DNA of 64,000 nucleotides, taken from assembly GCA_935421135.1 (NCBI GenBank), contig OW285189.1, forward strand, positions 5,601,072 to 5,665,071, given 5' to 3'. This document shows positions 4,394 to 64,000 of this stretch, in pieces. Each line of letters starts with the position of its first letter. The stretch's first letter is position 1. Under the pieces are notes generated by a model, which was not told the DNA's origin, did not search any database, and saw only the letters and a program-made list of their open reading frames with translations. This stretch comes from Bugulina stolonifera. Its lineage: Eukaryota; Bryozoa; Gymnolaemata; Cheilostomatida; Bugulidae. Both the position numbers and the translations under genes were made by a program.

Positions 4394-7173
4394 ATTACAA
4401 TTATATATAAAACATAAAACTTTTCAACGCTGTTATTTACAGATACTATTTGTGTAAAATGTTTTGAATTTATATTTAAACTGTTTAGTAACATCTCTGC
4501 TTTTTCACAATAATATTGATTTTAAAAATTTCTTTGTAAAATAGGACTTTACAGAGAAATAAGAATGAATGTTCACTCGACCAAATAATACTAGTAACCG
4601 ACTAGCGCGGCAGCGTATATCAGTAGAAAGTCTGTGAATGCGTTGATTGGTTAACCAAAATAAAGCCGCATGTTATTGGGTATTAAAATCTCTAATCGCT
4701 AACATGATAGGCTTATTGTACACAATTATCTACCCATAAAGGACTTTCAATAGCACGCGGACAATTCTGTTTATTTCAAGAAATGAGCATGGAGCTAGTT
4801 GTACTAATGGCATTCCTGGAACAATAGTTATACAATCTCATATAGTTAACATTGGTGTAATTGCAAGAGTATACTTTGGGTTTCTTTGGACTAACAGTGT
4901 GGTTAGTAGGAATACAGTACGGTTGCTGTGAGTTGGAACTGGAAAGACAATGAAATAAATTCAATTCTTATTTATTAGTAGTTATTTATTCTATTATAAT
5001 TATAATAATAATTATTGTTGTTGTAAAATTAAAAATTTACTCCATAATAAATAGTATAATAATTTTAATTAGCCCAGAAGTTATAGCAAGTATCATTGTT
5101 TAAAATTAAGAAGCACATTCATTTGTCTAGTAATAGTGGAATCTCTCGGTACTGTTATTGATTGATTGATTGAGGCTGAGTTAAATTAACTTTGCTCACT
5201 CCACTGTCACTGCTGTACCTATAGTAATGGTAATAGGCTACTACTACGTAGTAAATATAGTAATACTATCAGGTGAAGTTGTGACTCACTAGCAATTTAT
5301 TACAATAGTCACAGATCAAAAACACTACACTCACTCATCAGATCAGTGACTATACCTACTAACTATTATTTTAATAATTCAGGTGATTTCCATAGACTAT
5401 TAATCAACATGAACATGTTTATCATTGAATTGATTATATTTATATAATTATTTTATAATATTAATATTTGTGATTGTAAATTAATTTTTTGGTGATAATA
5501 AGTGTAATAGGCCTATTATGATTATGATTATTGTAATTGTGCTATAGGCCTATCAGCATTACTTTGAATGTTAGTATAGGCTAACTTTATATTGCTAGGA
5601 AGTTTATTTAAGAAATCTATAAACTATGACTTTGTTTTGCAGATGTGAACTTTCCTTTGTCCATTCCTGTCTATAGTTTGATTCCGAGGCTTTGTAGTAT
5701 CTAATTGCATAGCGCAGTTAATAGCCTAAATACATTATAATCAAAGATCTACACCAGCTTAGCATAATCTTAGAATGGTTTCAAGCTAAACTATAACTGA
5801 AAGGAAAGATGATATGGAAGGAAAAATCTAAATTTATTAGGGCTGTTAATTAGTCATTAAACATTATAATGTAGAACATTGAATAGTCTTATGCAAGTTT
5901 ATAGGCCTACGTCATTTATTAATTTCTTAGTAACAGTTTGTTTAACCACAACTTTCCTAGCCTTTCTACCTGCAATAGAATAGGTGCAGGTTGAGTTGTA
6001 GCATTGATTTTTTTATCTATAGGTTGAAGATTAAAGTGAAATCTGGATACCAGGATGCACATTGCCACAACTCTATGTGTGGCGCTCATCCATCATACCC
6101 ATCAAGTAGGTTATGATTATGAACTCTTTTCCTGGGACTCGTGCACACAAACTGTAACAACTGCTTTCCAATTAGAAATGGGTTTCACGGTTAAAATGAG
6201 ATGCTTGATTTAATTAAGGCTTGTTATTTTGTATATATGTGTGAGAATGTACTTGGTAGATTTCTGTCGTCTATTATAGAGCTGTTATGGATTTAATTCA
6301 TAGGTAACATCCAGAGTGATCAACTATATCAACATATATGTCTTATCAAAATCGTACTTTATTTTACTCTGATATAATGTGATGCCAATTTGGCAAGAAT
6401 CATGTAACTACTAATAGCTGTACTGTTATGGTAGGACAGTAGGCATTGAACATGTTTCATGTGTGGTAAGCGTGAAGCATTTATTTATCTGGTATCAATT
6501 TCCTAATATAGGTCTACTAGACAGAATATTGATTTGTGCTGATGCTGTGAATTTTGAAGAGTTGGCTGATCTTATTCCTAAGAATGGCAAGGAGTGACTT
6601 CTAAATATTGAATAAGAGTTCTTATGCTATTTTTATTCAGTAAATATTTAAAATAGATTTGGTCAAAATATTGGCATTTATACTCCATGTTATGAATTGG
6701 TTTTGTCTGTCTACATAAAGGTTTTTATTTGTAATATGCAACTTCTGCAAATCTGTTCTACATATAGAAATACACCTATTAGTATTTATACTCTATCAAT
6801 CATGTGATACCAGGATAATCCATAGGACGTAGGACAATTAACAACTACAGTAGCTTTAGCTGTATTCTAATTTGAGGTAAAAGTGTTACTTAATGCTACA
6901 GCTGTTAAGTAAAGTAATCTTGCCTACTGAAAGCCAAAATAACTAGAACTAGGAGCTGTGTAATAATAATTTTGTGACGTACTAATATACTAATGTACAA
7001 TATTTGCAATTACCACGCAGTTACTATCAAAGTTACAAAATATGATAAATATAATAATTATGTTGGTCTGAAATAATTGGAAAATATGAGTGCAACAAAA
7101 AATTATAGATAATTGGTAGCAAAAACAAATTTGGACTACTAACTAAATGACTAACTAATCATAGCAGCGCGTG

Positions 7174-46327: not shown

Positions 46328-47170
46328 TCAAGCTGATACGTGACTTTTAGTGGATCTTTCTTCACTTTGATTTTCTAATGTATCTATTTGAGCCCTATAT
46401 CCTGTCTGCAACAAGAGACATAATGTACATTATAATGAGTTATATTTTAGAGCCGCGCCCTTACTCTCAGCCTGTTGTGGCTTTCCACTATCTGAGCACT
46501 CTAAACACATGATGAACGTTACTAATGAAAACAAACTACATCAAGGGGGGGGGGGGGGTGAGCAAACTACCCGACTGATGGGTCCACCTTCAAATTATGT
46601 TTATTTTGAATCTGATATAAAACAGAATTATAGTGAGATAATTAGACTTATCTTCTCTTGAAATAATCTTCTATTAGTTTGTCATGAGAAACCTCGCTGT
46701 TTTGTTAATTAGCTTGCAGATAGTGTTATGTGTCTAAGGACCACTGGAGTTTACAAGAAGTCAAATGAGGCTTTAGAGATGCATTTTTCTCACATTTGAG
46801 TTGTATATACGGTTAGAAACAGTCTTGCCCAATCTCAATCATTTGTTGTGTATCGACATTTTGTAGCATAAAATAATTTCAAAATCGAAATTAGTTTGAA
46901 CTGGGCGTGCTCCATGATTTAAAATATTTTGATAGAAAATAATGCTTCGACAAAGGACCACTAAAGATAATTGTGAAGTCGAAACTTACAAACACTAATT
47001 GCTATTAGAAGACTAACACATTACATGATTGTACTATAGTGGAACTATTAACTTACTTTTCGCCTCCTTAGTGATATGAATATTGTTAGAGTAGCAGCTA
47101 AGGTAACGCATACTACCAGACCGACTGAGGTAAAGACAGCTACGTAGTTGACGGGCAGATTTTCATTGCT
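46328..47170 (-). CDS. Transmembrane helix and cytoplasmic tail exons of the mucin
   Basis: Exon 47057-47170 encodes SNENLPVNY, then a hydrophobic stretch of about 24 residues (VAVFTSVGLVVCVTLAATLT..), then SLRRRK, a basic stop-transfer sequence. Exon 46328-46405 encodes TGYRAQIDTLENQSEERSTK and SHVSA, then stop. The tail of 31 residues from SLRRRK onward has no kinase, ITAM or PDZ-binding motif I recognise. A minus-strand AATAAA lies at about 45819-45824. Confidence 0.85.
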
Positions 47171-50100
47171 CTGTAAAATATACAATCATAAAGTATATTA
47201 TAACTAAGTACATGCATGGTAATCCTAACCGATTAATACGCCCAAATCATGCAGGAGCAGACGATATAGAAACCAACATGCATACATGGACATGTAAGGC
47301 AGCATGCGGATTGATAACTAGACAGCTGGATATGCAAGAGCTGGTATTCTTCAGTAGAAATAGTAACAAATGATAAGCTGACTAATATGAAGTAGAAAAT
47401 AGTGGTACGATTCCGGCATCCTGAGGTTGCTATTATTCATCATTCCAGTGGCTGGTTTATTACTGGTCGAACACCACAAGGTGTCTCCGTATTCCATTGA
47501 TTAAGTCAGTTAGGTTCAAGCTATGCTGGTGATTTAAGGATACTTCTAATCAATTGTTTACTATGAGAACAATTTGAATTCAAGTCTGTTTAACAAAACG
47601 TCAAATGTTGAATGTTATGTGTATGTGTAGTAAATGTATATGGGTGCATGGTGTACATTACATCAACAACTCTCTCACTTCATCCGTCCCTTACCTTTCC
47701 ATCTTCTGAAGGAGATTCACTCCTGTACTTTTCTAACAGCTTCTTGAGCTTGTTATGGTTCTCTGACATGGAGATGTCCCTTCTACGTCTTGCCGAAGTC
47801 TGAGTTGTATCTAACATACACTGCTTGCACGTGATTGGACAGATCTCTCTGCCGACACGATCATTACAGATTACAGGTGTACACAATTCATCATCAGGTG
47901 TGCTAGGACACGGCACACAGTCGGCCTTCACCTCCAGCACCAGACTACAAGCGTAGCACATTATCCGAATTAGTAGGCGAATACAGATGCTATGACTCAC
48001 TCATAACCTACACACCTGCAGGTTTCCTGCCTTATAGTTATAGCTGTTACATTACACTGGTACGATGTACTGTGGGTATTACTGCATACTGGTACATTGT
48101 ATCACATTGCAATGGTTACTGCCATAAACATCTATTGCATTATGGATATCACTGCTTATAGGGACATCAGATGCATTATGGGTATTGTTACACACTGGTA
48201 GCTAAGGTATTACATGACATACATAGATTTTGGCTCTGGTCGCACTCCCAACACCCGTATAATTTTGCTACTGCCGTCCTTCCTGTCTATGAACACGTCA
48301 AACCTGATCTCATCAATATAGCCAACAGGGTGAGCTCTATTTGGATCCTGCTCTATCACAGTCACAAAGATACTGAAGTTCTAAAAGACAACAACAAAGA
48401 CAGTGTAAACACTGTGCACTGATTTGTCTGTCCATTCACCACTAGGTCATATCTATTCAGACGTATTTCTATGAGGCAGTTAAACAAGAGGAGCTATGAG
48501 AACTTTACGCCTCTAATAGCCGTCCGCCATAAAGCAACATTAAGACGTGTGGCTCATAGGAATGTTTGGCCTCACCGTGTGCATAATATCTAATTTGAAC
48601 AACAGCAGTATTTTTGAAAGACCAATATTCTTTCGGACTTTGTTGCATATTCACAAACTCCATATACTGTACCAGAGAAACTGGCTGCTCTATGAAGATA
48701 TCAGTTGTGTGTCTGCGTGGTTTTTATACGAAATAGAAGTATTCTTTACTACATAAATAACTACAGATAGCTTATAATCATGTGTTACTATAAATAGCAT
48801 ACAGCAATGTGTTACGATAAATAACTTACCGTCCAGTTATAATCAGTGACAGTGATGACGATTGGATTCTCCCAACCAGATACATTAAACAAGGGGAAGT
48901 CAATTTCTGTTCCCTCTCCCACAAGAGGAGTATAGAAGTTGTAGTACGAGCAATCTCTGCAAAAAGAATATTCATAAACCAACAGTAGCTAACAGCAACA
49001 ATTCCTTATGACTCTTTGCTCCCATTTTAAACAACAAAAGTTGACATAAACTCTTATTTTACTACAGCTTGTTTTATTCCGTGGCAATACTTGTAGTGTG
49101 CTCTTAAGCAAATATTTATCATCTAATGGAGACATCGCTAAAATTGGTGAAGAAACCAGAATGTAACCTGTGCATATCAAAACTGTGCTTAGCAGTGAGG
49201 CTACATAGCTAATAGCCATCCCAATGGCTTTTACTAGTTCATACGGATAGTTGGCATGCAGCCAACTTGTACTGAGACTAAAAAGTACAAACTAGACAAG
49301 GATGATATCACTCATCCCATGTGTCGGGCTGAGAGCTTCAGCCTTGAAGACAATCAAATTCGATACATGAAAACCACTAAATAGTTGAGCTGCTTGTGTG
49401 CACATATAATATAGTAGTAACAGCAACATATCTTACTTCTGTCCACTGCTAAGTGGTCCGATACAAATATCAAATGCGATGTCACATTGGTCATTAGGAT
49501 CACCAGACTCTCGGACATCACATCGTCTTCCTACAGCCGTGATGTCTGTTGGGTTGGTAAAGTTAACAAATGTAATCTCCAGGCCAGTGAGCATCGTGTC
49601 TGTACAAGGCTGTTCAGTGGTAGTTGTAGGAGTCGTTGTGGTGGGCGTCGTAGTTGTAGTTGTTGGTGTAGTGGTTGTAGTTGGTGTAGTAGTTGTGGTA
49701 GTGGTCGTTGTTGTAGTTGATGTACTTGGTGTTGTGGACGGTGCCTCTGTTGTGGTGCGCACCACACAATCACTGTATACCTCCAGTACCAGCCTGAAAT
49801 CGTATGTTGGCTTAGCAATGACCAAGACACCATCAAGTAAAAATTTGACTGCCTACTAGACCTACAAACCACAAATTAATATAAATATAATACAAGTGCG
49901 AGTGAGGGAAGCACTCACTCTGTTTTCTCTGGTATCTTCCTGAGACCCTCCTCTACATAGAGACGAGTTGAACCATCACGGCTGTAATTGTAGTAGTCAA
50001 AGATAAACTCGTCTATGACATCTAGCGGAATAAACTGCTGATTGTCAGTCTTCTCGTCTAAATCGATGACTCTGATGTAGATATTGACTCCCTGCAAGTA

Positions 50101-53100
50101 GATTACTGGTATCAAGTATCTGCAACCACTACTACTACCTTGTACTGCAACTACCGCAACTACCGCTACTACCGCTACCACTACTACTACTACTACTACT
50201 ATTACTACTACCACTACTACTACTACTACTACTACCACTACTACTACTACTGATAATACCATCACTGCTACTACCAGTTGGACAACTACTGCTGCCTTTT
50301 GCACTATTTAAAATATACGCTATGTATTACTACATCCCGGTGGCATTTAACATTTGCCCGCATAAAGTATTAGCTAATCACTATTGGGTGTTGCAGTCAA
50401 CAGTAGATACACATGAGCAATATTGGAATTCCAAACTTGTAACTGACAAGCTAAATTAAAATACTAATAATTGCTTGACAACAATTGCCAATTCGAACGC
50501 ATAAATTGTGATGCAAATCACTACCAAAATTTCAGTGCGGTTAAAAGTGAGATATTGTGCACATTGAGCTACTAACTGCTGTTGGTAAGGAGTCAATGTA
50601 GATGACAATAGGATTAGTCTGATTTCCAACTGTGTCATTGAAGGAATAGATGGTGGCTTCTGCTACCTCCCCTGTCAGCATAGAACTGTACTCACAGGCT
50701 CTGAAATCAACATTCACACAATTTATTACAACCAGTGTTAGTTCTCATGAAATAATATCATCCAACATTAAAATGCACTCTAAAAAGTGTGTGAGGGTTA
50801 CCAACAAACAGTTGCAGGCACACATTGTACACAATGTAGTGGAACAACAAATACGATATCTCCTGCATACAATACGAAGAGATATACCAATTCTAGAAAT
50901 TGCTATCTTGTACGAGCTGGTTTTTCAGATGTAAAAACGTATAATTTTAACTGAAATTAGTTCAGGTATGGGCATCAAGGTCTGGAATAGTAGAATAAGA
51001 CTTAGACTTACATAGAGTTGAGATTGCTGACACACACTTCAAATTGTAGGTCACAGTAATCATCTGGGGCTGCTCCGGGGAAATCTCTGTCACATAGAGG
51101 ACCCGTGGCTTTCACATCAAACGGATTGGAGAAGTTGACAAACTTTATTTTCAATTCAGTCGGCATGTCTTCAGTGCAGCGCAATGTTGTCGTAGTTGGT
51201 GTTGTCGTGGTTGGTGTTGTGGTGGTGGTAGTAGTTGGGGTGGTAGTTGTAGTAGTTGGGGTTGTGGTGGTAGTTGTTGGTGTTGTAGTTGTGGTGGTAG
51301 GAGTTGTAGTTGTAGTAGTTGGTGTTGTAGTAGTTGTTGGTGTTGTGGTGGTAGTTGTTGGTGTTGTGGTGGTAGTTGTTGGTGTTGTGGTGGTAGTTGT
51401 TGGTGTTGTTGTAGTAGTTGTTGGTGTTGTGGTGGTAGTTGTTGGTGTTGTAGTGGTAGTTGTTGGTGTTGTGGTGGTAGTTGTTGGTGTTGTGGTGGTA
51501 GTTGTTGGTGTTGTGGTGGTAGTTGTTGGTGTTGTGGTGGTAGTTGTTGGTGTTGTGGTGGTAGTTGTTGGTGTTGTGGTGGTAGTTGTTGGTGTTGTGG
51601 TGGTAGTTGTTGGTGTTGTGGTGGTAGTTGTTGGTGTTGTTGTGGTAGTTGTTGGTGTTGTGGTGGTAGTTGTTGGGGTGGTAGTGGTAGTTGTTGGTGT
51701 TGTGGTTGTTGTGATAGGTTTTGGACACAATATATCCATTGTCAAATCCAATCTACAAGACATGGTCATTAAATTATGTTTCACATTTCAACAAAGCACA
51801 GTATAACTTTGTACAACATTCTGTTGTGTTATTACTTCATTACTTTAAAAATGGCTCCAACTATATGCACCTCTACCTGATATCGGCAATACCATGTAAC
51901 AAATTATACCACGTCCTGATACTGAATTACTACTCGACTATGTACCACGATTACTACATGTATATGAATTGGACATAGCATTATTACCGAGTTGTCCGGA
52001 AAAGAACAGCTCGACTTCCTGTTAGACTGAGATCTTCAGCTGGCCAGCTAGGCGCAGTTGTGTAGTCAAAGTTAAATTTGTCTACGAGGTTATACGTGAC
52101 TTGTCCACCGGCATCATCCTTATCCAACACATCAACCTTGACATTTACTCCCTGTGTTAATGAACAAAACGGCACTGTTATGACAGAAGGTTAGAATGGT
52201 TGTTAACCAAAAGATTAGCAGCACTATAAACATTATCCAATCAAAAGCTATATAATAACGTCCAGGATAGCATAACTAATATTATAATACTTATTTAAAC
52301 TGAAAGCTTACCGCAAATGTTTCGGTGCCGAGGTAAATGGAGAGAGGGTTTGGCAAACCGCCAATATTATCTCCAAACTGCACCGATATGTCCTTAATGA
52401 TAACCTCTGTTATACCATTGAAATAGTCGCATTGGCTGAAACACCAAACATTGAAACAAACATAAACACATGTACTGTGTAACAACACTTAGAAACACTA
52501 TATAAAGGCACAACACTCGCCTGAATTGCGTAACAGACACAGGTGTGCGCGCACACACACATACTTATCTATATGTATGTACATTTATAAGTATAAATAC
52601 AGTGTACATATAAATGAGATAAATCGCCAGTTTATCTGTTGCACACGTAGTAAACATAACATGACCAACACAATGCCATATCTACTGTACTACTATGCAT
52701 ACATCAACTAAAACACAAGATTACACACACGGACACATGATATCTACTGCAGCTATTACAGGCAACACTACACACAGTACCACACCTACTACTATACATA
52801 ACATAATACAGTACAATACCTGCTGCCTATCTTGGATATACATATAGCCAGCACAATGTCACAGGAGCCTCCATTAGCATCACAGTCATTGCCAAGGAAG
52901 TCAACGTCATATGGGTTAGAGAAAAGATTGAGAGTCATGTTCATCTCGGTGTAGCCTGTGGCCAGTGAACAGGATGGTGGTTCTTGGGGGCAACTCACCT
53001 CTAACCCAAACTCAAATCTTCAAAGTAATGTAGGAACACAGGTGAATATTAATATAATATGGTATTAGATTTGATGTCATACTTATTAAACGGAGACTGG

Positions 53101-56100
53101 AATACCAAACAAACAGCTTAGAGAACGTATATACATGTACATGTACATATATAGTAACACTCGGTTTCACACACCTTACAAAACAACAATTTGATGTTTA
53201 AAAGATGTACAAACAAACATACTGTGTAGGCATATCGCTGCGTTGTCCTATTTCTGTAAAGTTCTGCAAAGACTTTCCAGGATAATCGTCGTAGCTGAAG
53301 GTAAACTCGTCAACCAGGTCGTATGTGATGAAACCATTTCCTGTAGTGTCAGGATCATAGTCCCAGGCGTTGACAGCGAAATTCACTCCCTGAAAGTATT
53401 AGAAGAATGATTCATAGTTATAACTGCTACCAGTGAGTCACGTGTCAGATTGCTTTTAGCCAAATTGCACACAGCTGAAATTTCAGACATTGTTGATGTA
53501 TGCTGTAACGCATTTCTAAATATGATATTGTTTGACTTACATTGAATTTATCATATCCCAAATTGACGACATAGGGGTTGTTGAATCCCAGTGTATCGTT
53601 GGTGAACACTATTGAGTTTACGTTGTGCACGATGCTTGTTGTAATTGTTAGAAACTCACAATCGCTAAAAAGTAAAACGAAAATACAACGTAACATTAAA
53701 GCCAATCGTACTGTTTGATTGCCGTGAGCCAATAATGAATGAGTACACACAAGGGGAGATAAGACTTTACACGTCATCACGCAGTCAGCACTATGATGTA
53801 ATACAGCCGATGACTCTCCGGGGATACACCAATCGGCCATCTCACACCATGTTACATGCCATCACACTATGTTACATGCCATCACACTATGTTATACTCT
53901 GTCACATTATGTCAAGCTATGCCACACCATTTCACACTTTGTCGCACAAGGTCACACCACGTGTCGACTACCATACCTGTTGCCTAGACGACTGACACAG
54001 ATCTCCAACATGAGGTCACAGTAGTCAGATGGGTTTCCATCACATAACCTTCCAGTTGACTTGAGATTAGACGGGTTATCGTATCTGTAGAAGTATATGG
54101 AGGCAGTGGTGTATCCTTTCTGTAACGGGCACACTGGTGGTGCTGTTGTAGGAGTAGTGGTTGGTGTTGTAGTGGTTGTTGTTGGTGTGGTAGTGGTTGT
54201 AGTAGGTGTTGTGGTGGTGGTGGTAGGTGTGGTTGTAGTAGTTGTATTAGGTACGGTTGTAGTTGGGACATCACCTACAACAAATACAGCACTATTATAC
54301 CTACACCACTTAATCCCCAGAAAATTGGAATCTTAGTATTTTCAGCGTCCGATTAAGGAAATGACTTCTTATTTCATAACTAACGTCGATTAAGGTCAGT
54401 GAAGGACAGTCAACATACCAACACAGAGTCCACATCGTTTAGGGCACAACGTCTCAGCATTAGTTCCACAGAAAGCATCAGTACATATGCCTTGATCTAA
54501 TACTAGACAAGGTGGCAGTCGTCTGCATGGTGCTGGCGTGGTGGTAGTAGTAGTTGTAGGTTTAGTAGGGATACATATGCCACATAAGTGGGGACACACT
54601 CGTCTCTTGTACATGGAGAAACAGTGAGATAGCTCGCACAGCAGCTACAGTAACATATATTACATATACATATACATATATATGGTGCATGCAACAATAC
54701 ATTACCATATGATGATGCTCTAAAAGTGGTGGAGCAGCTGGGAAAATAAGTACATGCATATATACACGAATCATACTAGAGTCAATACATTATGTACATT
54801 AATACTCTACATCAAACCTCTGTAATATTATGACAAAGTTTAGCTAGATGAATTGTATTTAAATTAATAGACACTCATTACACTAAGTTCCAGGAGTTAC
54901 ATAGGATACAATGATTAGGTCACAGGAAGTAACGATTCACAGGGACAAAGAAAGGGCCAACTGCATACCTCGTCTTCCTTCCCACAGCCTAGTAACTTGT
55001 CTGCAGGGATCTGTGTTGGGTAGCACTTTGTAATGCAAACATCTGGTGCTTTTGTAGTGACAGCAACTGTCGTTGTACACAATGGCAACGTTGTGGTAGG
55101 AGTAGTTGTTGTGGTGGTTGGAGTAGTAGTTGTTGTGGTTGGTGTTGTGGTGGTTGTAGTTGGAGTGGTTGTTGTAGTTGTGGGTGTGGTAGTTGTTGTG
55201 GTGGTTGGCGTTGTGGTGGTGGTTGTAGGAGTTGTTGTAGTAGTCGTGGGTGTTGTGGTGGTTGTAGTTGGTGTTGTTGTTGTGGTTGGCGTAGTTGTTG
55301 TGGTTGGTGTGATGGTTGAGGGAGGTGTAGTGGTCCACCTGGTAGTCTTTCGTAGAACAGTACTATATGTTATAGGAGAGGGACAACCAGCTTGGAAAGC
55401 CACCGACAAACTGTAATCATATGGAAATCAGTTCATAGTTTTACAGCTCAATGCTAACAGACAAACAGACATGTGACAAGAGAAACAGAGTATAGAACAT
55501 CTGTGTAAAGTGCAATATAGTGTAAAGCGTAATATATAGTATGAAGTATATGTAACAGGACTTAGTAAATATTAGAGTATACAATGTAGGACAACTCTTG
55601 GTTACTTACAATGATTTGGGTGGATTTCTAACTCCGGGTACGACCTTGACAAGTGGCTCCGCACCAGCGACTTCAGTGAAGTTGAAATTAAACTCATCCA
55701 CGAGATCATATGGTACAGTTTGCACCTCAGTGTCTCTATCCCACACCGTAATGTACACGTTCAAGCCCTGCCAGATAAAGCAATACTTCTTATTATTATA
55801 AATTATATTTGCAATGCCCTTCACTGTTCTTAGCTTACTTATCCAGCTATGTAGGTATCCAAATATATTTGTCAGCTATTTTCACATGCATAGTAAGTAC
55901 ATGTCGAGTATACTTGCAGAGTAAGTACGTATGTACTTGCAGAGTAAGTACGTATATACTTGCAGAGTAAGTACGTATATACTTGCAGAGTAAGTACGTA
56001 TATACTTGCAGAGTAAGTACGTGTAGAGTAAGTATACTTGTATATGTGCAGACTAAGCACATACATGTACATATTATGTAAGTCATAATATCAGGCATAC

Positions 56101-59100
56101 CTTCAGTTCATCTATGCCCAGATCCACCAAGACAGGGTTTGGTAAACCACCAAATGTCAGTCCAAAATTTAACATAGTGGTCTCAGCCACAGTTCCAGTA
56201 ATACGATTCAGATAGTAACAATCTCTACAATGTACGGACATTGTGTTTGTACACTATATAAGCCTGAGGTGGCTAATAACAACAGTAGATGGTTATTGTG
56301 CGTGCAATGGAGTTAATGCCCTATTTTGTTACCGCAAGTAAACAGCGAAACCTACCTTGTCCCAATAGGGCTGACACAGATTTCAAACACGAGATCACAG
56401 TTATCCGGTCTACCATTAACGATACCTCCGGTATCACACAAGATGCCTGTAGACTTGAAGTCTGACGGGTTGGTATAGTTGAGGAAACTGATAGCAAATA
56501 CTGTGTAGCCAGAAGTGTGAGGGCAGAGCGGAGGTGGTGAAGTAACTACCGCAGGAGTACTTGGTTTCGTAGTTGTTGGTTTAGGAGGTGGAGTTGTTGG
56601 TGCAGGAGTCAACTTTGGTGTAGTCAATGCTTTTGTGAAAGGAGTTGGACAAGGGGCCTCCAACCGCAGTGTTAGCCTACAATAATAACACGCATGTGAC
56701 AATGTTTTAGGGAAGAAGTTGAAAATAGCTTACAATCAAAGTGAATTCGTGCATATGACGGCGGGGGGGGGGGGGACAATGCTCTTATACATACATGGAG
56801 TCTCTGCAGCTGGGTCTGTCCCCTTTGACTGATACGACTTGAGCTGGCATTCCTTGGGTAGTAACAAAGTCAAACTTGAATGTATCAATCAGCTCATAGG
56901 GGTAAAACACATCATCATCCATATCATATATAGACACTTTGATAGTTGCACCCTACAATAGTTAAACATCAAGTACATATAAGCAAGGGAGTCTCACCGC
57001 AGTTTTTATCTAATTAGGCAAACAGAGAAATAAACACGTAATACAGTATATCTCATAGTTGTAAGATCTGCAACCCACAGAAAACTGAGAAAATACTTAA
57101 ATTTTAATTAGTTCGGATGTAGCTAACACCAGCTTCACAAAGAAAGATAATTACCACCAAGTATTGAAAACTCTCTAAAAAGTTATCAGAAGACAAAGCA
57201 ATATTCTCACAGCCATATTATATTTGTTAGAATTGCCACGTAGAGATAGTATTACGTTGTACCTTGAACTGGGCAACTCCAAGTGGGAAAACCAGTGGGT
57301 TGTTTATATTTGTGTCGATAAACTGTCCAAAGTTAACACGTATATCTCTAGCTACAACGTCTGTAACGCTCTGGTAGAGAGAGCAGTCGCTGGAAGTAAT
57401 AATTTTACACACAATTAAAATGTAATAAGGACAAGACTCAACAGAATTCCACTCACTTTCAAAGTGAATTGAGTGACATGACACTAATTGGCTGCTTGTC
57501 AAAAGTTAGATATAATACTTACCTAGCGCCGAGATTGCTAATGCAGATGTCTAGCACGATGTCACAGTAGTCGTTGACCCCACCAGCGCTGACGTCACAT
57601 CTGCTGCAACCGTACTTGGCATCTGCTAGGTTCTCATATGAGACAAATCCGACTGTGAACTGGTTGAAGCCTGTGGTCACACCACCACACAGCACTGGAG
57701 GTTGGGTGGTAGCAACAGTAGTGGTTGGAGAGGGAGTGTTAACTGTACAACTTGGGGATACAGTTAGCTGCAATCTATAACATCACATGGCACAATAGCA
57801 GAGAGCTCCAGAAATATTTTGCACACACAAAGCCACATATCCAACACCAGCCACCAGAATTTACTATTACAGTGTAGTATAGGAAGTCACATCAATGATA
57901 GCTGCGAATTTTTCATGGCTACTTGAAATTACGTCGTGCTCCAGCATTATCCAAGTTAGTATACCTAGTTAGTATACCTAGTTAGTATACCTAGTTAGTA
58001 TACCTAGTTAGTATACCTAGTTAGTATACCTAGTTAGTATACCTAGTTAGTATACCTAGTTAGTATACCTAGTTAGTATACCTAGTTAGTATACCTAGTG
58101 CTGGGGGAGTTGACTCTATCTCCTCTGATAGTTACAGATCTCGCCTCACCATCTACTGGACGAATCAGATTAAAGTCAAGTATGTCCACTCTTTCATATG
58201 GAACCAGCATACTTCCTGCCTTCTCATGCCAGATTTCGAAATGCAAGTTTGCTCCCTAACAGCATGTAGAGTATACAATATACAGTATATAATACGGATG
58301 GGCAGAAACTCGTGAAACTTTGTGATTTTATCCACGAGGTACTACCTTTAAATTATCATTGCAAACGATTTTGTTATTTTCATTGTGATTAGTCAGTTCT
58401 GATAACGTTTGTAAAGATCAATGTTGGTGCTGTTGGTGCTGTTGTTGCGGATAGGCGAGTAAACGTGTGACCTACCTGCCAGTTGTTGGTATTTGTGGCA
58501 ATGAAAAGAGGATTATTATTCCCGTCAAACTGGGTAGAGAAAGTGATAGTATCTGACTGACTAAGCCTACCGGTAGTTATCTGTTTGTATGAGCAGTCGC
58601 TACAACATAAAGACATCTTATTATATATGTACAATGGCTGAGCTTTGTGACAACACATTGTCATGAAGTGGAAAACCCATTAATCTTATTTCATGGGTAT
58701 GTGAAATAAGTTGCAGTGGTAAAAAAATTTTAGACGCCCTTGGTTTTGCGATGGAACTGATGCAGAAGCTATCAATGTATTTATTTTGAGTAATACCCAA
58801 TCTATTTGCTCAAACACATGACTGGCTATCAAAATGTCTTTACTATTACATTTAGCATAGAGTCAATCTCATGTAGCAGCCAACATGAATAGATTGATAA
58901 ATAATTCCAGCGACTTATTTACCGAAACTACTAGCCTACCAAAAACGTACTTGCTCAATCTATCCACATTGATAGTGATAGTGTATTACTACACACTGAT
59001 AGTTATAGTATAATATTGCTAATACTAACTTTTTATTCAAAGGACTTATACAGATATCTAAGACCAAATTACATCCAGCGCCAGTTTGGCTACATGATGC

Positions 59101-62100
59101 TCCACTGAGTAAAGTGTTTGTAGGGTTGTAAAACTCCTTGAGCTCTAAATTGAATGTCCTAAAATAAATTATAACATAATACCATTAGAGATCAAAGCAA
59201 ACCGATAGATGTGGTGAAAATGAATTGAGATTGTAATATAAGATGTGGTATCTATAACAAACTACATGTAATTCACATGAAGTCTTACCATTCAGTCTGT
59301 GTAGCGGCACATCGTACAAATGGAGGTGGTACAGTACAATTGGTGGGCGACTTTGTGGTGGGTCGAGTTGTAGTGCTTTTAGTGCACGGGGCAGTTGTTG
59401 TGGTTGTAGTGGTAGTTGTACTTGTAGTAGCGACAGTACTTGTTGGTTGTGCAATGGACGATGGAGAACTAGTGGTGATTGGAGTAGGGCAGTTTGCTCT
59501 TATAGCGAGAGTGAGGCTGCAGACGTATGAATATAAAACATGAACAACACAGTTAAATGAATGTAAATACATCATCATTCTTTCATGAAATGAACAGCAG
59601 TAGACCGAGTCAACAGAATGGATGATCAACAATAAACACGAGTCAGCACTGCAAGTTGATAGTGTGTGAACCGATGAGGTAGTAGTATAACTCAGTGGCA
59701 TAAGCGAACAGTAGAAATATTGATAGTGTTATTAAGTACGTAACATTTAGAAGTAAGTGGTGTGAGTTACTTGAAGTAAAAACAATGTCATGAATCAATA
59801 GCATAAATTACTAATAAAATTGGTAGACTGAATTTGAGGCCAGCTACAGAAATAAAAGAACTCACGTAGATTTTGGAGGGGCTCGAACGCCGGGAATGGT
59901 TATGATTCTTGGGTTAGCACCGGGTGTCTCATTAAAATCAAACAGGAATTCATCCACCAAGTCAATTGGAATGTTAGTATCTTCTCCGTCATCTCTATCC
60001 CACATAGATATGTAGACATTAACACCCTGTAACCAAGCATATACAACCATAGAGAGCGCAAATAAGAAACACAAATAAATACAAATTTATAACGAGATGC
60101 ACACTTTAACATTGACTACTGTGAAAGATAGACACAGTCTCATAGCAGTAACCTATTAATATCAAAAGTATAGCATATATACCTCAAAAGTATCTCTTCC
60201 TAAATCAACCTCAAGTGGGTTCTTCCATCCATCTATGGTGCCTCCGAACTGCAGAACTGTTGTTTGACCAAGCACTCCAGTCTGTTTCTCAGCATACTTG
60301 CAATCACTATGTAAACAACATAAGCATGTTACGTAAGTAATAAGCTAATTCTAAAAGCCTAAAATAATTTAATAAAAAGAAGGTATTTAAATATTTTTAA
60401 TCTTGAGAAACCTTACCCTGATCCTATTTTGCTGACACAAATCTCCATTGCGAGGTCACACTTTGTACCGTCTTCGTCGCATGGCACGTTAGTAGACTTG
60501 GTATCGTTAGGGTTACTGTATCGGATGAAATCTATGTGTAAGGTTGTGTAGCCAGTTCGTAGTTGACATGGCATGGGTTTGGTCGTTGTACCTAAAACCG
60601 GTAATCAACAGTGTACAGTGCAAAGTCAGTATGTGAAGTTGTATGACTGAACATATACACTTTTTGCATCGGAAGAAATTGTACCTTTGTATGTCATTGT
60701 GTAGGATCAAACCTGAGAAGAGAGCACAAGTACATGTAGATACATGTAGGTCACAGATATAGTCTCTAGGCATTAGTATTAATAATGTTTACTTACCAGC
60801 TGTGGTAGTTGTTGTTGAACTTGTAAATAATGTGGTAGTAGTAGGCGTTGTAGAGGTTGTGGTGGGCTGAGTGGTTGTTGTAGTTGTTGTCGGCGTTGTA
60901 GATACAGTAGATGTAGTACAAAGACCACATAACTTTGGACAATATATTTTCCGCCTGTCATCATTACAGTGCTTAGGTATACACAGGTTGTCGTCTGGCT
61001 TGGAGCAATCGTGAGTGGTTGGTGCAATAAAAACTTCTGTACAGGAAAGAGTACAGTATGGTGTAGTTGTGGGTTTGGGTGGCGTGGTGGTTGTAGGTGT
61101 GGTAGACTCTGTCGTAGTGGGTGTAGTAGTAGTTGTTGGTACAGTTGTTGTCGTGGTTGTAGATGTAGTAGTTGGTGTGGTTGTTGTAGTGGTAGGGGTG
61201 GTGGTTGTAGTAGTGGGTGTAGTAGTAGTGGTTGGTGTTGTGGTGGTAGTTGGGGTGGTGGTAGTAGTAGGTGCTGTAGATGTGGTGGTGGGTGTTGTAG
61301 TGGTAGTAGTAGGTGTAGTGGACTCTGTGGTGGCTGGTGTAGTTGATGGAGTAGATGCTGTACTAACTGTTACTGGTATAGGACAACCAGCCTGCAGTCC
61401 TAGACAAATCCTAAACAATTAAAAAGATTGATATTATCATATTTTTAATTCCATTACATTTTCAACAAAGAGTGCTGCGCGGACATTATACCATCATTTC
61501 ATATTTAATTTTTGTTGAGATGACTGCTCCATGTAATTTCACGAGAGTCTTCTCTCGTCAATACTGTCAGTTACATTTCCACCCTAAGTTCACTAACTAG
61601 AGCAATGGCACAACTTTTGCTTTTAGGTAAACAAAGCAATGTCATAGCTCTCCAAGTACAGATTAGTCTCTTGAAGTTAAATATCTGCACACACATCATC
61701 TGCATATGACTCATGTACGTAATCTGTAACATACTCTGACATACCTTGACTTGGGGTCAGTCCTGATTCCTCTGTAGCAAGACCTGGATAGAAAGCCTGC
61801 AGGCTTCATGTAGTCTATGTCAAACTCATCCACCTGATCGAAAGGAACGAACAGGTTCTCTCTGTCACTGTCCCACACAGTAATGAGGATGTTCACACCC
61901 TGTAAATACAAACACATGCCACTTTAAGGAATGCTAAGCCGAGTCAATTTAAAATAATAGATGCAGGAAAGCAGTTAAAACTTGGACTTAAAAGAGAACA
62001 CATACTTTTCAGTGTTAGGTAGGAGTAGAATCAAAATGCGCTGCCTGTTTTAATTTGTTACTTTAGACTACCGCTTCGAATAAGAAGTTAATACTGATAC

Positions 62101-63900
62101 ACCAACAGTGTTTGCAGTGAAACTATTGAAACAATGCTTCAAATTTCAAATCCTCGGTCAAAAAAACCTATGCCAAGCAAAAACTCAGCTCATTTTGGTT
62201 GATTTTTAAAAAGCTGAATATATCGGCCAATTTACATCATACTTACATGTATATATATATATGTACGTGTACACAGAGGTATCCCCATTGTAGTTGATAT
62301 GCATTATCCCTACATGCATATGTACAGAGGCAATTAGTTAGTACATGTATTCAACTACATTTTTGTATATATATGTGATCAAATGAAACAGCTAACACGT
62401 AATCTCTCCAATATGCAATGAACTCTTACCTTCCACTCATTCTGTGAGAGATCAATGAGGAGCGGGTTAAGTCTGTCACCAACAAAGTAATCGAAAGTCA
62501 CATTTGTAGACGATGACTCCACAACACTGGTGAGTGTCCTCATGTATTCACAGTCTCTATTAAGCCATATGACATACACAAGTATAGTATACACATAGCA
62601 TACAATACATATAACATAGAATACATGGGAATAGAGAATAGTGCTGGCATATTCTGCAGTACAGATAACAGACCATGACTAATCTAAGTCCAGTCAAGTA
62701 CCCACAGCTCGTACAGTACACACAATGCACATTCTGTGTACTTCACGAGCTGTGGGCAATTAAAACTTGCAGGTTGACAATTCACACCTACCTTTGACCC
62801 AGTTTGCTGACACAGATCTCAAAAACTAGGTCACAGTAATCAGTCGGAAATCCTTGCTTATTCAAGTCACACCTGACTCCTGTGGCCTTGAGGTCTTGTG
62901 GGTTGAAGTAAGACTCAAACCTCAGTGCAAACCTGGTATATCCACTAATATTCCGACATGGAACGAATGTTGTAGTCGTTGGAGTGGTTGTTGGTGTTGT
63001 AGTGGTTGTCGTGGGAGTGGTAGTGGTTGTTGTGGGTGTTGTGGTGGTGGTAGGTGTTGTAGTTGTAGTAGTTGGCGTAGTTGTTGTAGTAGTTGGTGTT
63101 GTGGTGGTTGTAGTGGGAGTGGTAGTAGTTGTAGTTGGTGTTGTAGTGGTTGTTGTTGGAGTGGTAGTTGTGGTGGTTGGTGTAGTAGTTGTTGTGGTAG
63201 TAGTAGTGGGTATGGTGGTTGTAGTGGTGGGTGTAGTAGTTGTAGTTGTTGGCGTTGTAGTCGTGGTAGTTGGAGTTGTAGTTGTTGTGGTTGGGGTGGT
63301 TGTAGTTGTAGTAGTTGTTGATATTGTAGTGGTGGTAGTGACTATTGTTGGGGCTGGGGTTGTTGATGATGTTGTTGGTGCTACAGTTGTTGCCTCAGGA
63401 CATCGAACACGTGGTAAGAACTGCAACCTGTAAAAAATGTACCACTGTGAGAACTCGCACTGACTAATGCCTTCACTGGCCGAGTGCAATCAGATAAAAG
63501 TTATAATGGTCAAGATTATACCACAACACTCTCCTATCTCCTATGACATGAATGCAAAAACATCGAAAATCATATACATGTACATGTACATGATCAAATC
63601 TTCAAAGAACTGGATTAATACGACTTGTTAGAACACTTTCAACTTAACATGTAATCATTCAAGTTTGCTCAGATAGTATGTACGTAGATTAACACATTGA
63701 GGAAAAAGTAAATAATGATTCATGCTTATATATAGGACATACTTGGTTGGGGACTTTGGCCTGGTACCGGTCATTGTAACAGGTCTACCAGCACTGCCGG
63801 GAACATCAAGGAAAACATAGTTAAACTCGTCCACCATGTCATACTTGAGGAACCGGTTCTCTGGGTCAAAGTCCCATATGGTGACATAAATGTGTACTCC
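46328..63900 (-). CDS. Giant membrane mucin with tandem MNNL-like C2 domains and ShK domains (5' partial)
   Basis: Thirty-five exons join in one frame to 2,598 codons plus stop; the start lies beyond 64,000. Nine complete and one partial copy of a domain of about 150 residues repeat (exons listed in the module entries). Each runs F-x-L/I..NP..CD...DYCDLVFEICVS, DCxY, NPL.I.L, GVNVYITVWDRD, DLVDEF, PPKS, L.L.A.CP. This order of strands and cysteines matches the MNNL domain at the N-terminus of Delta/Jagged ligands, where CD.YFKVCL, PC.F, YTLLVEAWDS and YQIRVTC stand at the same places. Thr/Pro linkers typical of O-glycosylated mucins separate most copies, and four ShK six-cysteine domains are interspersed. 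The C-terminus has ARRRRD (furin-like), a helix (VAVFTSVGLVVCVTLAATLT) and the tail from SLRRRK to KSHVSA. No DSL or EGF domain seen. A cell-surface adhesion, matrix or signalling role is inferred; substrate and partner are unknown. Confidence 0.85.
46545..46558. repeat. Poly-G run
   Basis: About 14 consecutive G in the last intron of the mucin gene. A similar run of about 13 lies at 56763-56775. Confidence 0.85.
47695..47944 (-). CDS. ShK domain 4 and furin-like stem of the mucin
   Basis: Begins LVLEVKADCVPC. The ShK-type cysteines are spaced C-2-C-8-C-4-C-8-C-3-C-2-C (ends CPITCKQC). It continues TSARRRRDISM, a consensus proprotein-convertase site, and a charged stem (NKLKKLLEKYRSESPSEDGK) before the membrane. 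Confidence 0.83.
48223..49793 (-). CDS. MNNL module 10
   Basis: Exons a 49437-49793, b 48830-48956, c 48223-48380. Thr/Pro linker of about 45 residues, then LEITFVNFTNPTDITAVG, CDIAFDICIGPLSSGQ, DCSYYNFYTPLVG, NFSIFVTVIEQDPNRAH, YIDEIRFDVFI and RPEPKS. It is the membrane-proximal MNNL copy and leads directly into ShK domain 4. Confidence 0.83.
49919..51752 (-). CDS. MNNL module 9 with the longest mucin linker
   Basis: Exons a 51012-51752, b 50577-50700, c 49919-50091. Exon a carries about 24 copies of a seven-residue unit (TTTTTTP), encoded by a 21-base minisatellite at about 51185-51715. Each unit offers many O-glycosylation sites. The domain follows with LKIKFVNFSNPFDVKA, DYCDLQFEVCVSNLNS, ACEYSSMLTGEVA (Ala replaces Asp), GVNIYIRVIDLDEK and DVIDEFIFDYY. 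The long Val-rich and Asn/His-rich frames on other strands and frames are artefacts of this repeat. Confidence 0.85.
50135..50295. repeat. (ACT)n microsatellite in a mucin-gene intron
   Basis: Interrupted ACT/CTA repeats between exons b and c of module 9, unrelated in frame to the coding Thr repeats. Confidence 0.8.
51988..53017 (-). CDS. MNNL module 8, without mucin linker
   Basis: Exons a 52820-53017, b 52312-52435, c 51988-52151. Only about ten residues (CPQEPPSCSLATG) separate it from module 7, so the two domains are directly coupled. Landmarks: TEMNMTLNLFSNPYDVDFLG, CDIVLAICISKIGS, QCDYFNGITEVI (Gln replaces the usual Asp), GVNVKVDVLDKDDAGG and NLVDKFNFDY. Confidence 0.82.
53223..55410 (-). 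CDS. ShK domains 2 and 3 plus MNNL module 7
   Basis: Exons 54969-55410, 54419-54644, 53977-54274, 53541-53664, 53223-53389. The first opens SVAFQAGCPSPIT, has a Thr-rich linker, and ends with the first half of an ShK domain (three cysteines, ..GKEDE). The second exon completes that domain (..CPHLCGIC) and adds a third ShK (..CPKRCGLCV). The third carries another Thr linker and GYTTASIYFYRYDNPSNLKS. Landmarks of the rest: DCEFLTITTSIV, GVNFAVNAWDYDPDTTG and DLVDEFTFSYDDYPG. Confidence 0.82.
55610..56676 (-). CDS. MNNL module 6
   Basis: Exons a 56356-56676, b 56101-56224, c 55610-55767. The linker is Pro/Thr/Lys-rich (TTPPPKPTTTKPSTP) rather than poly-Thr. The domain shows GYTVFAISFLNYTNPSDFKS, NCDLVFEICVSPIGT, DCYYLNRITGTV, GLNVYITVWDRDTEVQT and DLVDEFNFNF. 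Confidence 0.85.
55906..56040. repeat. 23-bp minisatellite in a mucin-gene intron
   Basis: About five copies of GAGTAAGTACGTATATACTTGCA between exons b and c of module 6. Not adjacent to either splice site. Confidence 0.85.
56795..57774 (-). CDS. MNNL module 5
   Basis: Exons a 57523-57774, b 57263-57389, c 56795-56952. The linker is short (about 20 residues, PSPTTTVATTQPPV). The domain shows TGFNQFTVGFVSYENLADA, DYCDIVLDICISNLG, DCSLYQSVTDVVARDI, GATIKVSIYDMDDDVF and ELIDTFKFDF. Exon a has two extra cysteines (YGCSRCDV). Confidence 0.82.
57954..58098. repeat. 13-bp minisatellite at the donor of a mucin-gene intron
   Basis: About 11 copies of AGTTAGTATACCT. On the transcribed (minus) strand the exon ends CACTAG and the intron starts GTATACTAACTAGGTATACT. 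Each unit therefore repeats the donor-like TAG|GTATAC and the branch-site consensus TACTAAC. Confidence 0.95.
58095..59516 (-). CDS. MNNL module 4
   Basis: Exons 59289-59516 (linker), 59030-59158, 58476-58599, 58095-58255. An extra intron splits the domain just after QTEW. This is the most diverged copy: TFNLELKEFYNPTNTLLSG, CNLVLDICISPLN, DCSYKQITTGRL, and GANLHFEIWHEKAG in place of the usual VWDRD. The donor of its last exon opens a minisatellite. Confidence 0.75.
59866..61410 (-). CDS. MNNL module 3 preceded by ShK domain 1
   Basis: Exons 60797-61410, 60417-60591, 60183-60306, 59866-60026. The first carries two Thr-rich stretches around a complete ShK domain with cysteine spacing C-3-C-11-C-7-C-4-C-8-C-3-C-2-C (ends CPKLCGLC). 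The MNNL domain is split one exon more than usual, at AG|TTKPMP. Landmarks: GYTTLHIDFIRYSNP, GVNVYISMWDRDDGED and DLVDEFLFDFNETPG. Confidence 0.85.
61745..63427 (-). CDS. MNNL module 2 with long mucin linker
   Basis: Exons a 62792-63427, b 62430-62556, c 61745-61899. Exon a begins LQFLPRVRCPEATT, closing module 1. It then has about 120 residues of TTTTTTP-type repeats followed by GYTRFALRFESYFNPQDLKA and DYCDLVFEICVSKLGQ. Exon b starts DCEYMRTLTSVV; exon c has GVNILITVWDSDRENLF and VDEFDIDY. Confidence 0.85.
62701..62756. repeat. Hairpin in a mucin-gene intron
   Basis: CCCACAGCTCGTACAGTACA (62701 onward) pairs with the inverted TGTACTTCACGAGCTGTGGG with two mismatches over about 26 bases. 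It sits between exons a and b of module 2. Confidence 0.6.
63743..63900 (-). CDS. MNNL module 1, last exon only
   Basis: Exon type c (phase 0 in, 2 out). Carries GVHIYVTIWDFDPENRF, MVDEFNYVFLDVPG and RPKSPT. The first two exons of this module should lie just beyond the window. Confidence 0.8.
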
Positions 63901-64000
63901 CTAAAACACATGACACAATGGTAACATAATTTATTCAGATTCTACTCCAAAGCAATTAACTGAGTTACAAACGAATCGGGTGTAATAATTAATATATGAA

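What the first reader, a model, noticed from the sequence alone, without database searches (positions are those of the whole stretch)
46328..63900. Membrane mucin with at least ten tandem MNNL-like domains and no DSL or EGF
The MNNL domain is known as a single N-terminal C2-type domain of Notch ligands, followed by DSL and EGF repeats. Here the same cysteine and strand pattern (CD..VFEICV, DCxY, GVNVYITVWD, final CP) repeats nine full times plus one partial. Thr/Pro mucin linkers and ShK domains separate the copies, and a transmembrane helix follows. I know of no described family with this architecture. It could be a multivalent lipid- or glycan-binding surface coat, an adhesion molecule, or an ancestral relative of Notch ligands.
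Basis: partly seen in the sequence, partly recalled or inferred. Interest (0 to 1): 0.88.

Follow-up and report, generated by a model that had tools for sequence, protein, structure and literature searches.

The report
Bryozoan Notch-ligand relative, sixteen MNNL modules
A bryozoan (moss animal) appears to carry a giant cell-surface protein built mainly from sixteen copies of the front domain of Notch ligands, three of them still followed by the Notch-ligand hallmark DSL domain, strung on mucin-like spacers; it looks like a rebuilt Notch-ligand gene, not an ancestor of one.

Summary
Real, and larger than reported. The window is chromosome 3 of the bryozoan Bugulina stolonifera, not a sponge. 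The minus-strand gene runs upstream out of the window: a 64-exon model, 4,518 aa, one open frame from signal peptide through a transmembrane helix to a short tail (no transcript support). Homology to MNNL is supported: 11 of 16 modules hit Pfam MNNL at E<=10 (best 3.7e-7), and the module profile's best two PDB matches are Jagged-1 and Delta-like. 'No DSL' is wrong: three DSL domains over Pfam's cut-off follow modules 1, 2 and 6, all upstream of the window. 'No EGF' holds for this gene. A second tandem gene and an MNNL-DSL-EGF gene lie on the same chromosome; the latter shares the four exon boundaries compared, so the array looks derived from a Delta-type gene. Most likely working (inferred): multivalent Ca2+-dependent membrane-binding adhesion or coat protein, probably not an ordinary Notch activator. 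New variant of a known kind.

The parts
46328..63900 (-). In-window part of the gene: 35 of 64 model exons (M7 exon C, M8-M16, tail). The gene continues upstream beyond base 64000 to an ATG at C3:5680491, with M1-M6, exons A and B of M7 and three DSL domains (DSL1 C3:5678394-5678273 + next exon from 5677961; DSL2 C3:5675463-5675339 + next exon from 5674866; DSL3 C3:5666730-5666606 + next exon from 5666416)
   Evidence: Gene model, on window + L002-L004; 4,518-aa frame without internal stop; DSL scores
63743..63900 (-). Module M7, exon C (partial module in window)
61745..63427 (-). Module M8 with its mucin spacer (exons 63427-62792, 62556-62430, 61899-61745)
   Evidence: Pfam MNNL 23.3 bits, cut-off 22.5
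59866..61410 (-). Mucin spacer with ShK-like cassette, then module M9
58095..59516 (-). Spacer and module M10 (lacks both Ca2+-ligand Asp)
56795..57774 (-). Spacer and module M11
55610..56676 (-). Spacer and module M12
53223..55410 (-). Mucin spacer with two ShK-like cassettes, then module M13
51988..53017 (-). Module M14 (short spacer)
49919..51752 (-). Mucin spacer (21-base repeat x 24.7 at 51195-51706) and module M15
48223..49793 (-). Mucin spacer and module M16
47695..47944 (-). Last strand of M16, ShK-like cassette and RRRR (furin-type) motif, residue 4424
47057..47170 (-). Transmembrane exon (helix about residues 4465-4489)
   Evidence: hydropathy
46328..46405 (-). Cytoplasmic tail exon and stop

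Best explanation
A giant single-pass membrane glycoprotein of the DSL (Delta/Jagged) lineage in a bryozoan. SHOWN by sequence: signal-peptide-like start, 16 MNNL/C2-type modules, DSL after modules 1, 2 and 6, Thr/Pro spacers, six-Cys cassettes, RRRR motif, TM, about 28-residue tail, no EGF. INFERRED origin: internal multiplication of the three MNNL exons of a Delta-type gene like the one at C3:24.3 Mb, with loss of the EGF repeats and of most DSL units, and spacers grown in the 5' part of exon A. INFERRED working: stiff O-glycosylated spacers hold many C2 modules away from the cell; each binds Ca2+ between its loops and, through it, phospholipid or glycolipid head groups, weakly alone and strongly together. 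It therefore works as a multivalent, Ca2+-dependent adhesion or surface-coat molecule toward other membranes (neighbouring cells, symbionts or microbes) and may be released at the RRRR motif. The DSL domains are probably relics or modulators rather than ordinary Notch activators. Odds as I judge them: homology to MNNL-DSL ligands 0.95; derived rather than ancestral 0.9; membrane-binding adhesion or coat as main role 0.5.
For: Homology: best two PDB sequences for the 16-module profile are Jagged-1 (E 1.8e-4) and Delta-like (0.012), next synaptotagmin C2 0.9 and an Arg-tRNA synthetase 1.8; with paralogue modules added, Jagged-1 2.4e-4 and two Delta-like sequences 8.7e-4 and 1.1e-3; Pfam MNNL hit by 11 of 16 modules; profile-profile match to two ligands of the same genome, probability 96.4%, E 1.3e-9; three DSL domains over the Pfam cut-off, each directly after a module. 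Derivation: the MNNL-DSL-EGF gene at C3:24.3 Mb has its introns at the four places compared with the same phases (A|B 2, B|C 0, C|DSL 2, inside DSL 1, read by eye) and the same shortened DSL loop; the strong C5 ligand shares only B|C. Ca2+ site: the two side-chain ligands in Jagged-1, Asp72 and Asp140 (PMC3888931, passages), map to columns with Asp in 14 of 16 and 13 of 16 modules (mapped through the alignment). [quoted passage not shown] Mucin: 1,451 of 4,518 residues in Thr/Pro/Ser-rich stretches.
Against: No structure, transcript, binding or expression data. Modules M1, M10 and M16 lack or change the Asp140 position, M6 and M10 have Asn for Asp72, and M1 aligns poorly. DSL domains have been kept in both tandem genes, which argues for some use of them. 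Two of three tested paralogue modules give no Pfam MNNL hit, and 5 of 16 modules of this gene give none. Three protein searches found no relatives, so conservation beyond this genome is untested. The splice sites were chosen by hand to be GT-AG and in phase.
Confidence: 0.5

Rival explanations
1. Notch modulator: the MNNL-DSL units bind the bryozoan Notch receptor, and the protein acts as a cis-inhibitor, decoy or clustered ligand.
For: Three DSL domains kept; DSL also kept in the paralogue (28.7 and 22.6 bits); a Notch receptor with LNR and NOD domains is present. DLL3, a ligand that inhibits in cis, is a precedent (PMC4391858, abstract start only).
Against: All three DSL domains are 3 or more residues short in the loop that holds Phe207 of Jagged-1, which is needed for Notch-1 binding (PMC3888931, passages); 13 of 16 modules have no DSL; no EGF repeats, which in known ligands also help binding (PMC4810162, passages); the tail is about 28 residues. 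But the EGF-bearing Delta gene at C3:24.3 Mb has the same short loop, so the loop alone does not settle it.
Confidence: 0.2
2. Shed mucus or cuticle-surface protein: the ectodomain is cut at RRRR and forms a lipid- or microbe-binding gel.
For: One RRRR motif between the last module and the TM; a third of the protein is mucin-like; ShK-like cassettes and VNTR-like spacers.
Against: A TM and tail are kept; no known gel-forming domain (such as VWD) was hit in the pieces scanned.
Confidence: 0.2
3. Allorecognition or self/non-self surface protein of a colonial animal, made variable by its repeats.
For: Colonial host (PMC10213821); repeat-rich spacers; modules differ from each other (17-47% identity to M8); a paralogue exists.
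Against: No population data; no sign here of high polymorphism. Inference only.
Confidence: 0.07
4. Pseudogene, mis-assembly or a run of several genes.
For: No RNA evidence used; gene models of such repeats are error-prone; stop-free frames in Thr/Pro repeats mean little.
Against: One frame of 4,518 codons without internal stop over 64 exons, long-read assembly (PMC10213821), module cysteines kept, a paralogue with the same exon scheme. Only a 230-base gap separates the exons before M2, leaving no visible room for a gene end and a new start there.
Confidence: 0.05

Closest known systems
Delta/Jagged DSL ligands (e.g. Jagged-1, Delta-like)
   Same: Signal peptide, MNNL (C2) then DSL, TM; Cys pattern, Ca2+-ligand Asp positions, one intron boundary shared with the strong C5 ligand and four with the C3:24.3 Mb Delta
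   Different: 16 MNNL instead of one, 3 DSL instead of one, no EGF, mucin spacers and six-Cys cassettes, shortened DSL loop, very short tail
AmqDelta4 of the sponge Amphimedon (PMC3482393, passages)
   Same: MNNL and DSL with no EGF repeats
   Different: One MNNL and one DSL, no mucin array, a sponge
Unusual Nematostella DSL genes (PMC2770060, passages)
   Same: [quoted passage not shown] the authors allowed for mis-assembly
   Different: There the DSL is multiplied; here it is the MNNL
Multi-C2 membrane proteins (synaptotagmin type; synaptotagmin is the next PDB match)
   Same: C2 sandwich family and Asp-rich loop; several C2 modules in one chain
   Different: Those C2 domains are cytosolic; here they are extracellular and disulphide-rich (location recalled)
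Membrane mucins
   Same: Long Thr/Pro tandem repeats, one TM, short tail
   Different: No SEA domain found in the pieces scanned; globular modules between the repeats

Membership tests
DSL-ligand family (Delta by the definition in PMC5356439: SP, MNNL, DSL, at least 9 EGF, TM, ICD) | MNNL domain | tested here: met
   M8 23.3 bits over the cut-off 22.5; 11 of 16 modules hit at E<=10, best 3.7e-7; PDB best matches Jagged-1 and Delta-like. 5 of 16 modules gave no hit.
DSL-ligand family | DSL domain right after MNNL | tested here: met
   Three, at 30.3, 29.7, 28.7 bits, cut-off 24.2; 3 of 16 modules have one
DSL-ligand family (Delta) | EGF repeats | tested here: not met
   None in the pieces scanned or by pattern in the whole protein. 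By that paper's definition it is not a Delta; not filed as one
DSL-ligand family | Signal peptide and single TM | tested here: met
   Hydropathy only: windows within residues 1-26 and 4459-4491; no dedicated predictor
DSL-ligand family | Notch-binding loop of DSL (Phe207 in Jagged-1) | tested here: not met
   Loop 3 or more residues shorter in DSL1-3; DSL1 keeps a Phe nearby, so for DSL1 this is not certain
DSL-ligand family | Binds and activates Notch | not testable with these tools
   Needs a binding or reporter assay
Jagged | VWC domain | tested here: not met
   No VWC hit in the pieces scanned
C2 domain, Ca2+-dependent | Asp72 and Asp140 Ca2+ ligands | tested here: met
   14 of 16 and 13 of 16
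C2 domain | C2 fold | not tested
   Structure prediction not called: its stated rule does not take exon-joined proteins
Membrane mucin | Long Thr/Ser/Pro-rich repeats with TM | tested here: met
   1,451 of 4,518 residues; 1,194 Thr
Membrane mucin | SEA domain | tested here: not met
   No SEA hit, domain X after DSL1 included (only MA3, E 0.098)
ShK domain | Pfam ShK profile | tested here: inconclusive
   Six cassettes by pattern; one of five pieces hits ShK at E 0.31

The most novel reading that the evidence does not exclude
A lineage of DSL-family proteins has left Notch signalling and become an extracellular poly-C2 surface-recognition system: mucin-spaced arrays of Ca2+/lipid-binding MNNL modules that read membranes of other cells or microbes, with a few DSL units kept as a link to (or brake on) Notch.
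Probability: 0.25. Interest if true: 0.82.

Novelty: new variant of a known kind. Interest (0 to 1): 0.62.

Why it matters
MNNL is treated as the single N-terminal cap of Notch ligands. Here it is the repeated unit, mostly without DSL and wholly without EGF, in a bilaterian that also has an ordinary ligand and receptor. That offers a natural test of what the C2 domain does on its own: whether its lipid binding, known as an aid to Notch activation, can be the main function.

Tried and rejected
Rejected: sponge or cnidarian origin (assembly fits Bugulina stolonifera); 'no DSL'; ancestral relative of Notch ligands (ordinary ligand, Notch receptor and a same-exon Delta in the same genome); ordinary Delta (no EGF). 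Led nowhere: three searches of the protein collection (8,000 candidates scored, none at E<=0.01; 433 candidates, none; 197 candidates, none at E<=0.1). These do not show absence elsewhere: how many animal proteins that collection holds is unknown, and length limits apply. The six-frame Pfam MNNL search of the own genome found only the C5 ligand, probably because the modules are split over three exons. Module tree: modules of the two tandem genes interleave (9 changes needed, shuffled mean 8.2; M9 with P2 supported 96/85), but only 2 of 25 inner branches are well supported and long branches meet, so the order of duplications is not resolved. Domain X after DSL1 (residues about 194-317): no family. 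tRNA scans of L023 (0 genes) and L024 (1) did not help with the organism. L025 (Notch receptor region) and L026 were fetched but not examined. Rows dropped: M1, P4, P8 and P9 were left out of alignment A2 (22 of 26 modules); two split exon-A hits were counted as one module, and two weak hits (E 0.097, 0.34) were disregarded.
Full report
WHERE IT IS. The window lies at C3:5,601,072-5,665,071 of an unnamed 234,951,659-base genome in 27 contigs. Contig lengths (C3 26,372,398; C5 20,271,823; C11 14,312,582) equal the published sizes of chromosomes 3, 5 and 11 of Bugulina stolonifera tzBugStol2.1 (26.37, 20.27, 14.31 Mb; N50 20,271,823; PMC10213821, part 1 of 2 read). Contig C27 is 14,440 bases, and its first 10,000 bases read like animal mitochondrial genes (nad6, nad3, nad2, cox2, cob and others, named by eye); the paper gives 14.4 kb. 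The published assembly counts 30 scaffolds against 27 contigs here; I take the difference to be small scaffolds. So the host is a bryozoan.

THE GENE. Module exons run off the window's right end, so I fetched 30 kb upstream. The model has 64 exons from an ATG at 79420 (window numbering carried on; C3:5,680,491) to the stop ending at 46328, 63 of 63 introns GT-AG, median intron 310 bases, 4,518 aa without internal stop. Splice sites were chosen by eye from the listing, then placed by a script that asked for GT-AG and for phases 2/0/2, so these two counts describe the model and are not independent proof. What is independent is that such sites exist at the matching place in every module, and that paralogous genes show the same scheme.

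THE MODULES. Each of 16 modules is made of exons A (with the spacer in front of it, sometimes on a separate exon), B and C. They share six invariant columns (C26, C38, C45, C54, D118, C155 in M8 numbering) and are 17-47% identical to M8. Pfam MNNL: M8 23.3 bits (cut-off 22.5); 11 of 16 modules hit at E<=10, best 3.7e-7; 5 of 16 do not; seven other families each hit one module, best E 0.0016. A profile of the 16 modules against 177,635 PDB sequences gives four matches at E<=10: Jagged-1 1.8e-4, Delta-like 0.012, synaptotagmin-1 0.9, arginyl-tRNA synthetase 1.8. With 22 modules (15 of this gene, 7 of the paralogue) it gives twelve: Jagged-1 2.4e-4, two Delta-like sequences 8.7e-4 and 1.1e-3, then synaptotagmin-1 0.15 and weaker ones. 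Profile-profile comparison with the two other ligands of this genome: probability 96.4%, E 1.3e-9, over 85 columns.

DSL IS PRESENT. Directly after M1, M2 and M6 the chain goes on into DSL domains, as in Notch ligands: 30.3, 29.7 and 28.7 bits against a cut-off of 24.2 when the closing exon is included; with differently cut pieces they fell just under it (23.2, 21.5, 21.5). In the six-frame genome search two of the three exons passed and one did not (26.5, 24.5 and 22.4 bits).

OTHER PARTS. Signal-peptide-like start and one TM by hydropathy, 28 N-glycosylation sequons, 1,451 residues in Thr/Pro/Ser-rich stretches, six six-Cys cassettes, one RRRR motif at residue 4424. EGF: none. A stretch of about 120 residues after DSL1 has no family.

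RELATIVES IN THE SAME GENOME. (a) A second tandem gene, plus strand, C3:22.950-22.970 Mb: ten modules by exon profiles (exon A and C for all ten, one of the C hits partial; exon B found for seven), DSL after the first and fourth (28.7 and 22.6 bits; the second is cut short and below the cut-off), ShK-like cassettes, then a probable single EGF (hand-joined; EGF_Teneurin 25.5 bits over its cut-off 24.3, EGF_DL_JAG 26.8 just under its cut-off 27) and a TM by eye. One of three of its modules tested hits Pfam MNNL (27.6 bits). (b) An MNNL-DSL-EGF gene at C3:24.3 Mb (MNNL 30.8, DSL 28.5 bits, several EGF). (c) A strong ligand at C5:18.97 Mb (MNNL 126.2 bits on hand-joined exons, 101.7 on one exon; DSL 69 bits; EGF-like frames). 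(d) A Notch receptor: three LNR and a 68-bit NOD match at C11:13,174,206-13,175,139. Searching with module M12, all 45 matches fall in the two tandem loci (a lower bound by the tool's own note); searching with DSL plus cassette, 7 of 8 matches fall in the three C3 loci and one weak match with stops on C9.

ORIGIN. The gene in (b) has introns at the four places compared, with the same phases as the array: A|B 2, B|C 0, C|DSL 2, inside DSL 1 (read by eye; one automatic lookup returned nothing and that boundary was read). The C5 ligand shares B|C, phase 0, but has A and B in one exon. The DSL loop that holds Phe207 in Jagged-1 is shortened in all three DSL domains here, in both of the paralogue and in (b), but not in the C5 ligand. 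I conclude that the arrays come from a Delta-type gene like (b) by multiplication of its MNNL exons. The tree does not resolve the order.

HOW IT MAY WORK. [quoted passage not shown] Those two positions hold Asp in 14 of 16 and 13 of 16 modules, and both are nearly invariant in the 22-module set. Hence the proposal: a multivalent, Ca2+-dependent membrane-binding protein on mucin stalks. The DSL units lack the normal Notch-binding loop, most modules lack DSL, and EGF repeats are absent, so ordinary Notch activation is unlikely; a Notch-modulating role is the main rival. None of this was measured.

WHAT IS KNOWN. Seen as passages: AmqDelta4 lacks EGF (PMC3482393; also PMC5684314, PMC10970066); Nematostella has DSL-only genes with 1 to 11 repeats and one MNNL plus 3 DSL gene (PMC2770060); lophotrochozoan 'Delta-like' and 'DSL-like' proteins of uncertain origin are mentioned (PMC5356439, PMC8166818); choanoflagellate MNNL+DSL (PMC6040629); others PMC4810162, PMC11843878, PMC4335385. 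No tandem MNNL array appeared in the listings and passages from ten searches of the open-access library (MNNL with ShK: 0 papers; 'MNLL' with DSL: 9 papers); subscription papers and preprints are not in that library.

VERDICT. Observation partly confirmed, interpretation partly supported; a new variant of the DSL-ligand kind, interest 0.62.

Noticed in passing
57954-58099: A perfect 13-base minisatellite (11.2 copies, 100% matches) begins at the splice donor of module M10 exon C; on the coding strand each unit reads AGGTATACTAACT, so each copy repeats a donor-like AG|GTATAC and a TACTAAC branch-point-like motif.
   Followed up: partly
55909-56022: A 23-base repeat (5.0 copies, 97% matches) in the M12 B-C intron.
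   Followed up: no
51195-51706: 21-base repeat, 24.7 copies, coding the PTTTTTT spacer of M15; likely to vary in number between individuals (inference).
   Followed up: no
L014-L016 (C3:22950392-22969565, +): Second tandem MNNL gene with 10 modules, two DSL, ShK-like cassettes and a probable single EGF before its TM.
   Followed up: partly
L018/L019 (C3:24317382 onward, +): MNNL-DSL-EGF gene with the array's exon scheme and the same short DSL loop.
   Followed up: partly
L003 (C3:5677961-5677136), upstream of the window: Stretch of about 120 residues between DSL1 and module M2 with no family match; it reads loosely like a SEA-type domain by eye only.
   Followed up: partly
L011 (C7:6324056): DSL match at the cut-off (24.2 bits) inside an EGF-rich frame, probably a multiple-EGF protein rather than a ligand.
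   Followed up: no
50128-50274: Long trinucleotide (ACT)n run in the intron before module M15 exon C.
   Followed up: no
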